In this document: positions 4,729 to 53,833 of the stretch, piece by piece
Position numbering within the stretch: the first letter of the stretch is position 1
Layout: each line of letters starts with the position of its first letter
NCBI RefSeq assembly: GCF_007004735.1
Contig: NZ_SSNL01000004.1
Span: forward strand, 124,001 to 188,000
Length of the DNA stretch: 64,000 nt
Direction: 5' to 3'
From: Salinigranum halophilum
GTDB lineage: Archaea; Halobacteriota; Halobacteria; Halobacteriales; Haloferacaceae
Made by a program: the position numbers and the translations under genes
The notes under the pieces: generated by a model
The model's database searches: none
The model's input: the letters and a program-made list of their open reading frames with translations, nothing else
What the model was told of the DNA's origin: nothing

Positions 4729-5075
4729 CGAATCACCCGTACGTTGGAGCCGTCGGGGTTCTGTTCGGCTAACTGTTCCAGCGTCACGGCGTCGCCGACC
4801 TGCTCGATCTTCGTGCGAGCGGTCGACGAGAAGTCGACGGCGGCGACGGTGACGTTCTTCTGCAGCACACCACTGCCCAGCACCTTGCCGGGGACGACGA
4901 CGGTCTCGTCCTCGCGGGCGTACCGTTCGATGCGTCCGAGGTTGACCTCTGCGTGGGTGCGCCGTGGCTTCTCTAAGCGGTCTGCGACGTCGGCCCAGAC
5001 GTTGGCGCCGGAGTCGCGCGAGGCCGCCTTCAGCTCGGCGATGAGACTTGCGAGTCTCGGGTTCGTCTTACTCAT
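4725..5075 (-). CDS. rpl18e: 50S ribosomal protein L18e (eL18)
   Basis: 116 residues, archaeal/eukaryotic-type large-subunit protein. [20 protein letters not shown] at the start and [19 protein letters not shown] in the middle are typical. It is the first protein gene after tRNA-Leu(CAG), 33 bases downstream of the tRNA 3' end, suggesting a tRNA-mRNA co-transcript that is processed. Confidence 0.96.
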
Positions 5076-5107
5076 GTTCTGTAGTCCAGTGAGGAGAAAT
5101 CGGAGGA

Positions 5108-5192
5108 TGCAGGGAGCAGGATTTGAACCTGCGGACCCCTATGGGACAGCGCCCTGAACGCTGCGCCGTTGGCCAGACTTGGCTATCCCTGC
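5108..5192 (-). tRNA. tRNA-Leu(CAG)
   Basis: 85 nt including the discriminator base A. Acceptor arms GCAGGGA / TCCCTGC pair perfectly, the T-arm is GCAGG-TTCAAAT-CCTGC, and the anticodon arm is CAGCG-TTCAGGG-CGCTG, giving anticodon CAG. The long variable arm (class II tRNA) fits leucine. No intron is visible. It heads the rpl18e-rps2 gene string. Confidence 0.95.
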
Positions 5193-5217
5193 GTGCATAC
5201 TCCGCTACTGCGTGCCC

Positions 5218-5224
5218 CTTGAAA
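5218..5224 (-). promoter_or_regulatory. TATA-like box for tRNA-Leu/rpl18e operon
   Basis: On the minus strand the sequence reads TTTCAAG. Its centre lies about 29 bases before the 5' end of tRNA-Leu(CAG), the right distance for an archaeal TATA box. The match to the haloarchaeal TTTAWA consensus is imperfect. Confidence 0.45.
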
Positions 5225-5346
5225 CCGCTTTCGATTGTCGTCCCGACCCTCACAGTTGGCGAGGGCGGCCGCTCTGCTGGCCAGGCGGGCGAGCGAGCCG
5301 TCGTGGGATGGTGGTTTCGGGGGCGCATCGGTTCGTTGTTGTTCGG

Positions 5347-6099
5347 TTAAATCGCGACTTTCTCTTCGAGTTCGGCCGCACGCGCTTCGATGGAGTCGAC
5401 GGCGCGGGTCACCAGTTCGTCGACGGTGAACGACCCGTCCGTCTCCACGTGGAAGACGAACGCGCCGGGGACGTCGTGGACCGCGACCTCCTTGCCGGGG
5501 TAACGGTTCGTGAGGTCGTTGTCGAACTCCTCCGTGGGGACGAGTTCACCGTCCGCTTCGATGACGCCGCGCAGGATGTTCGGCTCCTGCTCGTCGAACT
5601 CGGCGTCGGGATCGTCACCGACCACTTCGATCTGCTGGAGGTGTCGGTAGCCGACGGCCACGCCGCCCTGCTGTTTGGCGTGACGCTTGCCCGTCTCCAA
5701 GACGGCGTCGGCCTCGAGTTCGAGCCGCTGTCCCTCCTTGAGTTCGATGATGGGGACGTTCGCGTCGGCCGGCTGGACGAGCGCGTCAGACGACTCGATG
5801 TCGCCGGAGTACGCCGTCGCCGGCCCCTCGACGTCGAGCGCCAGCGTGACGACGTCGCCGACCTCGAAGTCGTCGAGGGGCGTCGTCAGCGGGACGAGCC
5901 CGAGCCGGAGCCCGATCATCTCGTCGAACATCACCGAGGAGTTCTCCACGAACCGCACGTCGTCGATGGAGAACGTCGGGACGTCGGCGATCATCGCCCG
6001 GCGGATGCCGTTGGCGAACGCCGGCGTCAGCCCGCGCGCGACGAAGCGCGCCTTTCGCTCGGTGCGTTCGATGAACTCGACTTCGAACTGTTCTGTCAT
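5347..6099 (-). CDS. rpoD: DNA-directed RNA polymerase subunit D (Rpo3)
   Basis: 250 residues, equivalent to eukaryotic Rpb3 and the bacterial alpha N-terminal domain, part of the assembly platform. It has [20 protein letters not shown] near the start (alpha motif) and the [17 protein letters not shown] segment. The start at 6099 is the Met of [11 protein letters not shown], one base after the rps11 stop; upstream in-frame sequence is rps11 shadow. Some archaeal subunits carry a 3Fe-4S or 4Fe-4S domain, but no cysteine cluster is visible here. Confidence 0.95.
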
Positions 6100-52856: not shown

Positions 52857-52867
52857 AAAAGATTATG
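52857..52867 (+). promoter_or_regulatory. TATA-like box of the structured RNA
   Basis: AAAAGATTATG is the only AT-rich element in the 180 bases between tRNA-Leu and the repeat region. Transcription would start near 52885, just before the first helices. Confidence 0.4.
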
Positions 52868-52920
52868 TGGGTTGGTACCGTACCCGTAGGTCCGCGAGAA
52901 GCGGCAAGGGCTTACCGGAC

Positions 52921-53046
52921 GACCGGACCCGTCGCGAGACGGATACGGTGTCGGTGCAACCACCAAGCGTCCCGTAACAGGGAATCGAGGTCAACGCGCC
53001 GACGGAGAACCGAAGCAGCCCAGAACCGTCCCACGAACGGTGTAAA
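52921..53046 (+). repeat. Structured RNA unit 0 (diverged)
   Basis: Starts GACC (52921) with a partner GGTC at 52989-52992. It contains a GNRA hairpin CCGTC-GCGA-GACGG and ends with a P5-like CCGT...ACGG and the AAA preceding unit 1. The P4 loop sequence is not conserved, so this may be a 5' capping module rather than a true copy. Confidence 0.45.
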
Positions 53047-53159
53047 GGCCAAGTAGCGAGGAACGCGAAAGCGGGCCGAGCGAACTCGACGGCAGTCGAA
53101 CTGGCCGTAAGGACTGGGGAACCCACAACCAGTCCGCACCCGTTCAGCGAACGGCGGAA
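53047..53159 (+). repeat. Structured RNA unit 1
   Basis: 113 nt. P1 GGCC 53047-53050 with GGCC 53103-53106. GNRA hairpin CGC-GAAA-GCG at 53064-53073. P3 TCGAC-GGCA-GTCGA at 53086-53099. P4 GGACTGG 53111-53117 with CCAGTCC 53129-53135. P5 CCGTTC-AGC-GAACGG. Confidence 0.75.
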
Positions 53160-53279
53160 GGCCAAGTACCGGGTCACGTGAGAACGGGGCCCGCGAACTC
53201 GACGGCAGTCGAACTGGCCGAGAGGACCGGGGAACACACACAACCGAACCGGTCCGAATCCGTTCCGACAGCGGGACAA
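53160..53279 (+). repeat. Structured RNA unit 2
   Basis: 120 nt. P1 GGCC 53160-53163 with GGCC 53216-53219. GNRA hairpin CGT-GAGA-ACG at 53177-53186 (stem covaries from CGC/GCG). P3 identical to unit 1. P4 GGACCGG 53224-53230 with CCGGTCC 53249-53255. Confidence 0.78.
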
Positions 53280-53400
53280 GGCCAAGTACCGGGCAACGCG
53301 CAAGCGGGGTCCGAGAACTCGGCGGCAGCCGAACGGGCCGTAAGGAGCGTGGACAACACGCAGACCGAAGCGCTCCGAAACCGCTCACGGAACGGGAGAA
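53280..53400 (+). repeat. Structured RNA unit 3
   Basis: 121 nt. P1 GGCC 53280-53283 with GGCC 53336-53339. GNRA hairpin CGC-GCAA-GCG at 53297-53306. P3 TCGGC-GGCA-GCCGA (covaries with units 1 and 2). P4 GGAGCG 53344-53349 with CGCTCC 53371-53376. Confidence 0.78.
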
Positions 53401-53524
53401 GACCAAGTAGCGGCCCACGCGAGAGCGGGAGTCGTGAAGTCGGCTCTACGGAGCCGAGAAAGGTCGTGAGGTCCGGGGAAAACACCAACCGAACCGGGCC
53501 GAATCCGAGCGCAGAACGGCGGAA
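53401..53524 (+). repeat. Structured RNA unit 4
   Basis: 124 nt. P1 GACC 53401-53404 with GGTC 53462-53465, a compensatory change relative to GGCC/GGCC. GNRA hairpin CGC-GAGA-GCG at 53418-53427. P3 CGGCTC-TACG-GAGCCG. P4 GGTCCGG 53470-53476 with CCGGGCC 53494-53500 (one G-U pair). Confidence 0.78.
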
Positions 53525-53652
53525 GACCGAGTACCGGGGTCACGCGAGAGCGGGTCCCGCGAAGTCGACCCTCACGGGTCGAGAAAGGTCGTGAGGCCCG
53601 GGGAAAACACACAACCGAACCGGGCCGAAGACGTTCGACAGGGCGGCGAGAA
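53525..53652 (+). repeat. Structured RNA unit 5
   Basis: 128 nt. P1 GACC 53525-53528 with GGTC 53587-53590. GNRA hairpin CGC-GAGA-GCG at 53543-53552. P3 CGACCC-TCAC-GGGTCG. P4 GGCCCGG 53595-53601 with CCGGGCC 53620-53626. Confidence 0.78.
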
Positions 53653-53765
53653 GGCCAAGTACCGGACGACGCGAAAGCGGGGTTCGGGAAGTCGACGTAC
53701 CCGGATATCCGGAATCTGGGGCAAGTCGAACGGGCCGAACGGGCTGTGGAAAACGTTTCCCGGCC
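53653..53765 (+). repeat. Structured RNA unit 6 (altered 3' half)
   Basis: P1 GGCC 53653-53656 with GGCC 53733-53736. GNRA hairpin CGC-GAAA-GCG at 53670-53679. P3 is enlarged: TCGAC and GTCGA enclose an extra CCGGATATCCGG palindrome. The P4 module is replaced by a GGAAA-ACG-TTTCC hairpin, as if this were a terminal cap. Confidence 0.65.
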
Positions 53766-53820
53766 GGGTCCAAATTGCGGTTTCTCGCTTCCGTACAACG
53801 ACCCGAGCGACGGCGTCTCC

Positions 53821-53833
53821 CGTACGATTTTTG
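53821..53833 (+). terminator. T-run at the end of the structured RNA
   Basis: CGTACGATTTTTG, five T residues at 53828-53832 directly after the last GC-rich stem, 33 bases before the convergent gene's stop. Confidence 0.5.

What the first reader, a model, noticed from the sequence alone, without database searches (positions are those of the whole stretch)
52885..53832. Large tandem-repeat structured RNA of unrecognised class
About 950 bases next to tRNA-Leu carry no plausible protein gene but six tandem copies of a multi-helix module (113-128 nt each) plus a diverged first copy. This is ordered, not low-complexity sequence: each copy has the same helices with different bases. Large ornate RNAs are known from bacteria and phages but I cannot match this one, and an archaeal chromosomal example would be new.
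Basis: partly seen in the sequence, partly recalled or inferred. Interest (0 to 1): 0.95.

Follow-up and report, generated by a model that had tools for sequence, protein, structure and literature searches.

The report
Giant modular RNA tied to HARP
Haloarchaea carry a structured RNA that matches no Rfam family and was found almost only in genomes with HARP, a tRNA-cutting enzyme whose job in archaea is unknown; in this genome its core module is repeated six times in a row, and it likely serves as HARP's RNA partner.

Summary
In detail: six tandem ~120-nt modules (53045-53740) lie between a 5' domain and a 3' strand predicted to close into one RNA (~52890-53790). Covariance models built here found that RNA in 108 of 391 class genomes (107 credible) and in 3 genomes of two families outside the class. 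Covariation supports helices P1, P3, P4 (long-range), P5 and P6. No Rfam match. Distribution gives the lead: 101 of the 107 have HARP (PF08745), the protein-only RNase P homologue, against 60 of the other 284. By genus: 39 both, 1 RNA only, 18 HARP only, 28 neither. The RNA abuts HARP in 14 of 71 genomes inspected, 8 genera, in differing orientations. HARP's published companion, RNA ligase Rnl3, is missing from 40 HARP genomes; 39 of those have the RNA (15 of them in one genus). I infer an RNA partner that docks on the HARP oligomer, most likely restraining it; substrate and scaffold roles remain open. No expression or binding data were examined.

The parts
52861..52867 (+). TATA-like promoter element (predicted)
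   Evidence: GATTATG here, GTTTATG in the other three species of the genus; AT-rich TTTAT/TTCAT-like boxes at a similar place in many relatives by eye, not counted or tested
52874..52883 (+). GGTANCATAC-like upstream motif
   Evidence: a match with at most 2 substitutions near the 5' end of 22 of 40 relatives against 11.6% of shuffled sequences
52896..52907 (+). P1 outer strand, 5' side (12 nt)
   Evidence: pairs with 53775-53786 at 11 of 12 positions (read from the sequence); in 49 RNAs pairing is high for about 12-13 bp outward from a 3-nt bulge and then fades
52908..52921 (+). P1 middle (4 bp) and inner (7 bp) 5' strands with 3-nt bulge
   Evidence: middle 100% and inner 98.5% paired in 37 relatives; 6 of 7 inner pairs form in the window (read from the sequence)
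52953..53000 (+). P3: GGTGC/GCGCC, ACC/GGT and TCCC/GGGA hairpin with GUAACA loop
   Evidence: 97.8%, 95.2% and 92.4% of cells paired in 56 sequences, with compensatory changes
53016..53021 (+). P4 5' strand CAGCCC, predicted to pair with 53741-53746 across 720 nt
   Evidence: in 31 single-module relatives P4 is 97.3% paired and 5 of 6 pairs have changes on both sides
53025..53041 (+). P5 hairpin of the 5' domain
   Evidence: P5 94.9% paired in 56 sequences, 80.8% in the MAFFT alignment of 31
53045..53157 (+). module 1 (P6 junction, P6a, P6b, local hairpin, P5 hairpin)
53158..53277 (+). module 2
53278..53398 (+). module 3
53399..53522 (+). module 4
53523..53650 (+). module 5
53651..53740 (+). 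module 6, followed by the P4 3' strand instead of a local hairpin
   Evidence: position matches the module of the single-module relatives
53741..53746 (+). P4 3' strand GGGCTG
53761..53786 (+). P1 3' strands (inner, middle, AAA bulge, outer), predicted 3' end of the RNA

Best explanation
This stretch holds one member of a covarying RNA family, with its core module repeated six times, and the RNA is predicted to be transcribed as one ~900-nt molecule that likely works as the RNA partner of HARP, probably docking on the HARP oligomer through a terminal helix of tRNA-stem length and holding the nuclease in check. Shown: the covarying architecture, the six modules, the family in 107 class genomes, and the statistical and positional tie to HARP. 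Inferred: transcription, binding to HARP, and restraint as the outcome. Proposed working: the outer part of helix P1 is a ~12-bp stem ending at a 3-nt bulge, about the length of a tRNA acceptor plus T stem; HARP is reported to read the T-loop and to be sensitive to acceptor-stem length. P1 would occupy the tRNA site of a HARP dimer while P4 and the P6 junction hold the RNA compact. Repeating the module would give one RNA several contacts for an oligomer built from repeated dimers. Where Rnl3 is missing the RNA would be the only keeper.
For: Co-occurrence: 101 of 107 credible RNA genomes have HARP, against 60 of the other 284; by genus 39/1/18/28, Fisher p 2e-9. The 3 RNA-bearing genomes outside the class also have HARP. 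Adjacency: HARP lies within 1.5 kb of the RNA in 14 of 71 genomes inspected, 8 genera in 5 families, divergent in 9, convergent in 4, and once as HARP-ligase-RNA. Two Halorussus plasmids show the RNA in a stretch without an annotated coding gene, head to head with 'RNA ligase partner protein'; that gene table omits RNA genes. Alternation: 39 of 40 HARP genomes without Rnl3 have the RNA, against 62 of 121 with it. Shape: P1 outer helix ~12-13 bp. HARP reads the T-loop shape, is sensitive to acceptor-stem length and acts as an oligomer (PMC9051087, passages and section 13; PMC8266387, passages). A toxin-antitoxin origin of HARP has been proposed (PMC6380272, passages). Control family PF01036 shows no link: 26 of 40 RNA-positive, 28 of 40 RNA-negative.
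Against: No binding, expression or phenotype data were examined. In most genomes inspected (57 of 71) the RNA and HARP are not neighbours, unlike a compact toxin-antitoxin pair. 60 HARP genomes gave no RNA with R1; R2 added only one weak hit, G134. None of 27 HARP genomes elsewhere in the phylum has a credible hit. So HARP does not need this RNA everywhere. Six genomes have RNA without HARP; four are 82-89% complete, but G094 and G221 are 99% complete. Of the 39 HARP genomes with RNA and no ligase, 15 belong to one genus and 5 to another, so the alternation rests on fewer independent cases than it seems. HARP deletion has no growth phenotype in Haloferax volcanii (PMC12153264, PMC8266387), which says nothing about loss of the RNA. 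The likeness of P1 to a tRNA stem rests on length alone. Association tests were not corrected with a tree beyond the genus tally.
Confidence: 0.42

Rival explanations
1. The RNA is HARP's natural substrate: HARP would trim its 5' end to a monophosphate and, where present, Rnl3 would join the two ends held together by P1 into a circle.
For: P1 brings both ends together. Rnl3 was found only in HARP genomes (121 of 121), and one locus strings HARP, ligase and RNA together. Coupled HARP trimming and Rnl3 circularisation has been proposed for C/D box RNAs (PMC12153264, parts 1-2 of 3).
Against: 39 genomes have HARP and RNA but no Rnl3, and 59 have HARP and Rnl3 but no RNA. If the TATA-like box is right, the transcript starts only a few nt from P1, leaving little leader to remove (inference).
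Confidence: 0.22
2. The RNA is a scaffold or aiming subunit: with HARP it would form a ribonucleoprotein that processes some other RNA, the modules multiplying HARP docking sites.
For: Large and multi-helix, with a conserved module that can be multiplied. HARP from H. halophila is a dodecamer of six dimers (PMC8266387, passages) and all four species of the genus keep six modules. Archaeal HARPs are said to have specialised, unknown roles (PMC10941002, passages).
Against: The equality of six and six rests on one genus and a bacterial HARP. The other carriers read here have one module.
Confidence: 0.18
3. The RNA has its own function in halophile RNA metabolism and is only inherited along with HARP, for instance because both suit the same habitats or were transferred together.
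For: RNA persists without HARP in two genomes of 99% completeness, G094 and G221. In genus g33 the RNA stays at the same locus with and without the HARP-ligase pair.
Against: Mostly unlinked genes that nevertheless co-occur at genus level, repeated adjacency in different orientations, and alternation with Rnl3 are more than shared habitat predicts. A patchy control gene shows nothing.
Confidence: 0.15
4. It is not an RNA gene but a repetitive DNA element or a decayed protein gene.
For: Tandem repeats in GC-rich DNA can look structured.
Against: Compensatory changes in 13 and 31 relatives aligned without a structure and in 56 aligned to the model (302 double-change cells against 95.5 shuffled); module lengths are not all multiples of three; usually one locus per genome.
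Confidence: 0.01

Closest known systems
Type III toxin-antitoxin RNA antitoxins (ToxI of ToxIN)
   Same: A structured noncoding RNA, here in tandem repeats, tied to an endoribonuclease; would restrain it
   Different: Modules are ~120 nt rather than ~36 nt (recalled), single in the other carriers read, mostly encoded apart from the protein; inhibition untested
Large ornate bacterial RNAs (OLE, GOLLD, ROOL)
   Same: Long, multi-helix noncoding RNA of unresolved biochemical function
   Different: No Rfam match to any of them; archaeal; linked to a protein-only RNase P homologue
HARP-Rnl3 pairing (Seshadri and Gopalan 2025, PMC12153264, parts 1-2 of 3 read)
   Same: A gene whose patchy distribution follows HARP and which is sometimes adjacent to it
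   Different: The companion here is an RNA; in the class sample it covers 39 of the 40 HARP genomes that lack Rnl3
Archaeal RNase P RNA (RF00373)
   Same: Structured RNA with a core of ~300 nt
   Different: The genome has its own RNase P RNA elsewhere, and this RNA does not match RF00373

Membership tests
Any Rfam 15 family | Covariance-model score at or above the gathering threshold | tested here: not met
   Only tRNAs in the window; one chance-level hit at relaxed threshold in the locus; in 8 relatives only a tRNA and a below-threshold overlap with it; in the 3 loci outside the class two tRNAs and below-threshold hits only
Archaeal RNase P RNA | Match to RF00373 | tested here: not met
   The genome's single match is G000:C2:318510-318914, E 5e-45, not this locus
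Type III TA antitoxin | Tandem repeats of a structured unit | tested here: met
   Six modules in the window and three sister species; not met in the single-module relatives
Type III TA antitoxin | Encoded directly upstream of the toxin gene in one operon (as described in PMC8860590, passages) | tested here: not met
   Beside HARP in 14 of 71 genomes, and then divergent, convergent or beyond the ligase
Type III TA antitoxin | RNA binds and inhibits the nuclease | not testable with these tools
   Needs purified HARP and RNA
OLE/GOLLD/ROOL ornate RNAs | Match to their Rfam models | tested here: not met
   that these classes are in Rfam is recalled
C/D box sRNA (proposed HARP-Rnl3 substrates) | Boxes C and D with a guide | not tested
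   Not searched; size and multi-helix fold are unlike a C/D box sRNA as recalled

The most novel reading that the evidence does not exclude
HARP, known only as an RNA-free enzyme, has an RNA partner in haloarchaea: a multi-domain RNA with a terminal stem of tRNA length that binds the HARP oligomer and controls it, standing in for or working beside the RNA ligase, and able to multiply its docking module up to six times.
Probability: 0.5. Interest if true: 0.95.

Novelty: categorically new. Interest (0 to 1): 0.88.

Why it matters
The role of HARP in archaea is stated in print to be unclear, since its deletion shows nothing and RNase P RNA does the housekeeping (PMC10941002, passages; PMC12153264). 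A conserved RNA that follows HARP gives the question a concrete handle: a molecule to pull down, delete and mix with the enzyme. It also adds a large, modular RNA class in archaea, and would put an RNA beside an enzyme defined by having none. The pattern that 160 of 161 HARP genomes in the class sample have either the ligase or the RNA suggests that HARP needs a companion.

Tried and rejected
Rejected: protein-coding origin (module lengths, covariation). RNase P RNA or another Rfam class. A universal HARP companion: 60 HARP-positive, RNA-negative genomes rescanned with model R2 in two lots of 30 gave one more weak hit, G134, E 2.7e-6; the next best was 0.002. 27 HARP genomes outside the class gave nothing credible with R3; the best chance-level scores there, E 0.005, were in two HARP-negative genomes, G461 and G471. 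A viral form: a short pattern matched 100 stretches of viral contigs exactly; the 80 loci listed were screened with R3 and the best match had E 0.1. A plasmid form in other organisms: two searches found only Halorussus records. A general link with any patchy gene: PF01036 shows none. Dropped before counting: G062 (E 5e-4 with R1, no match with R2) and G064 (hit that reads like coding sequence by eye). A T-loop or certain kink-turn in the RNA was looked for by eye and not established. Haloferax transcriptome papers were searched for passages (in PMC6490895 none of the terms occurred) without recognising this RNA; supplements could not be opened.

Full report
What is there. The window interval contains six tandem modules of 113-128 nt, preceded by a 5' domain and followed by a short 3' strand. 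A DNA search over 60 genomes, the window's own included, matched 15. Three species of the same genus carry the six-module array at 93% identity, with nearly the same spacing. Other genera carry a single-module form of about 300 nt with the same 5' domain and 3' end.

Structure. I aligned 13 RNAs, named the helices by hand and built model R1: 90.3% of cells pair, no shuffle of 500 reaches it, and slides of one to three columns give 33-42%. With 56 sequences the figures are 95.2% paired, 20 of 27 pairs with double changes and 302 double-change cells against 95.5 shuffled; that alignment was fitted to the model, so it leans towards it. The P4 domain, aligned by MAFFT with 31 sequences, gives 91.9% paired and 23 of 29 pairs with double changes; long-range P4 alone is 97.3% paired. 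P1 has an inner 7-bp, a middle 4-bp and an outer 12-13-bp helix, set off by 3-nt bulges; the middle helix pairs fully in 37 of 37 RNAs, three of 40 loci being left out because the end motifs were not found. Over 49 RNAs pairing fades beyond about 13 bp. In the window P4 would join 53016-53021 to 53741-53746, so that the whole array sits inside one closed RNA; this long pairing is predicted from the relatives. Within modules the local GG..CC hairpin pairs with its own partner. P2 was not tested. An AGUA/GAA pattern at the foot of P6a resembles a bulged-G (sarcin-ricin) motif and many P6a loops read GNRA; both are by eye against recalled consensus sequences.

Not a known family. Rfam 15 gives only tRNAs in the window, one chance-level hit in the locus, and nothing relevant in 8 relatives or the three distant members. 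The genome's RNase P RNA is elsewhere.

Distribution. R1 found the RNA in 108 of 391 genomes of the class and 41 of 86 genera, mostly at one locus per genome. I drop G062 (E 5e-4; no match with R2), leaving 107 genomes in 40 genera. In the phylum, 294 genomes searched with R2 gave three members outside the class, in families f26 and f32, confirmed by R3 at E 8e-21 to 7e-16; R3 was built with these three among its 31 sequences, so that confirmation is not independent. Named carriers are Halegenticoccus soli and Haloferacaceae archaeon XH8, by an exact 26-base pattern in contigs of the same length as those of G021 and G029, and two Halorussus plasmids.

HARP. Near several single-module RNAs I saw a PIN-domain gene I recognised as HARP. 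In the same 391 genomes PF08745 has E<1e-20 in 161 (162 over the curated cut-off). RNA and HARP: 101 both, 6 RNA only, 60 HARP only, 224 neither, with G062 set aside. By genus: 39, 1, 18, 28. The six RNA-only genomes have no HARP hit; G328, G344, G397 and G405 are 82-89% complete, G094 and G221 are 99% complete. The three genomes outside the class all have HARP. Rescanning the 60 HARP-only genomes with R2 adds only G134. Outside the class, 27 of 80 further genomes have strong HARP; none of those 27 has a credible RNA. A control family, PF01036, is present in 26 of 40 RNA-positive and 28 of 40 RNA-negative genomes; these were picked by hand, the 40 positives from the 101 with HARP, and G134 was among the 40 negatives.

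Ligase. A 2025 paper (PMC12153264, parts 1 and 2 of 3 read) reports that HARP co-occurs with the circularising RNA ligase Rnl3 and that HARP deletions have no growth effect. Rnl3 (TIGR01209) is over cut-off in 121 of 391 genomes, all with HARP. HARP genomes split into 62 with RNA and ligase, 39 with RNA only, 59 with ligase only and 1 with neither, the last 85% complete (G134 counted as without RNA). RNA is in 39 of 40 ligase-negative HARP genomes and 62 of 121 ligase-positive ones. Lineages are not independent, so the p-values overstate the case: the 40 ligase-negative genomes fall in 14 genera, but 15 are from g28 alone.

Neighbourhood. Flanks, mostly 5 kb a side, were inspected in 71 RNA genomes by tblastn with one HARP protein: 14 have HARP beside the RNA. 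The 71 were not a random draw. Nine are divergent (G013, G096, G151, G342, G021, G374, G347, G028, G293), four convergent (G055, G152, G371, G324), and G341 has HARP and ligase head to head with the RNA after the ligase. About 0.2 of 71 would be expected by chance within 5 kb for one gene in a 4-Mb genome (my estimate). In genus g33 the same flanking genes and RNA occur in G094 and G344 without the HARP-ligase pair.

Mechanism. HARP is reported to recognise the T-loop shape, to be sensitive to acceptor-stem length and to need neighbouring dimers (PMC9051087, section 13 and passages), and to form a dodecamer of six dimers (PMC8266387, passages). The RNA's outer P1 stem has about the length of a tRNA acceptor-plus-T stack. 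I therefore favour docking of P1 in the tRNA site, with restraint as the most likely outcome, because the RNA is nearly always there when the ligase is not. Binding and restraint are inferred, not shown. Substrate and scaffold readings fit nearly as well.

Novelty in print. Searches of open-access full texts returned lists of titles and abstract starts, of which I saw 15 of 160, 18 of 18, 20 of 1,794, 10 of 78, 8 of 8 and 12 of 591; passages were read of PMC2864571, PMC10927574 and PMC12482152, and PMC6490895 held none of the terms. None described this RNA or a HARP-linked RNA. Papers beyond those lists, subscription papers, preprints and supplements were not searched.

Noticed in passing
L079, L080, L098, L102, L107 (insert 3' of the core): In other lineages the P6b arm is enlarged by copies of a different ~30-nt hairpin-like element (GGTG..AA..CC, often followed by CTAAAG-like letters); a core pattern of it occurs at least once in 16 of 40 RNAs and at least twice in 8, a second way of making the RNA modular.
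   Followed up: partly
L032 (G025), about 5091-5675, minus strand: Two complete single-module RNA genes lie in tandem about 444 bp apart.
   Followed up: no
L136 against L134 and L138: In one genus a HARP-ligase pair is present or absent at a spot beside the RNA while the flanking genes stay in order, suggesting gain or loss of the pair as a cassette.
   Followed up: partly
391 class genomes: 160 of 161 HARP-positive genomes have the ligase or the RNA; the exception is an 85% complete genome.
   Followed up: yes
L138 (G344), about 5001-5131, plus strand: A shorter, diverged form of the RNA occurs in genus g33 besides the standard one; its function and status are unclear.
   Followed up: no
window 52874-52883 and relatives: A GGTANCATAC-like motif lies near the start of the RNA in 22 of 40 relatives, perhaps a regulator site.
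   Followed up: partly
G021 and G037: Each of these genomes has two strong HARP genes; in G021 one is beside the RNA.
   Followed up: no
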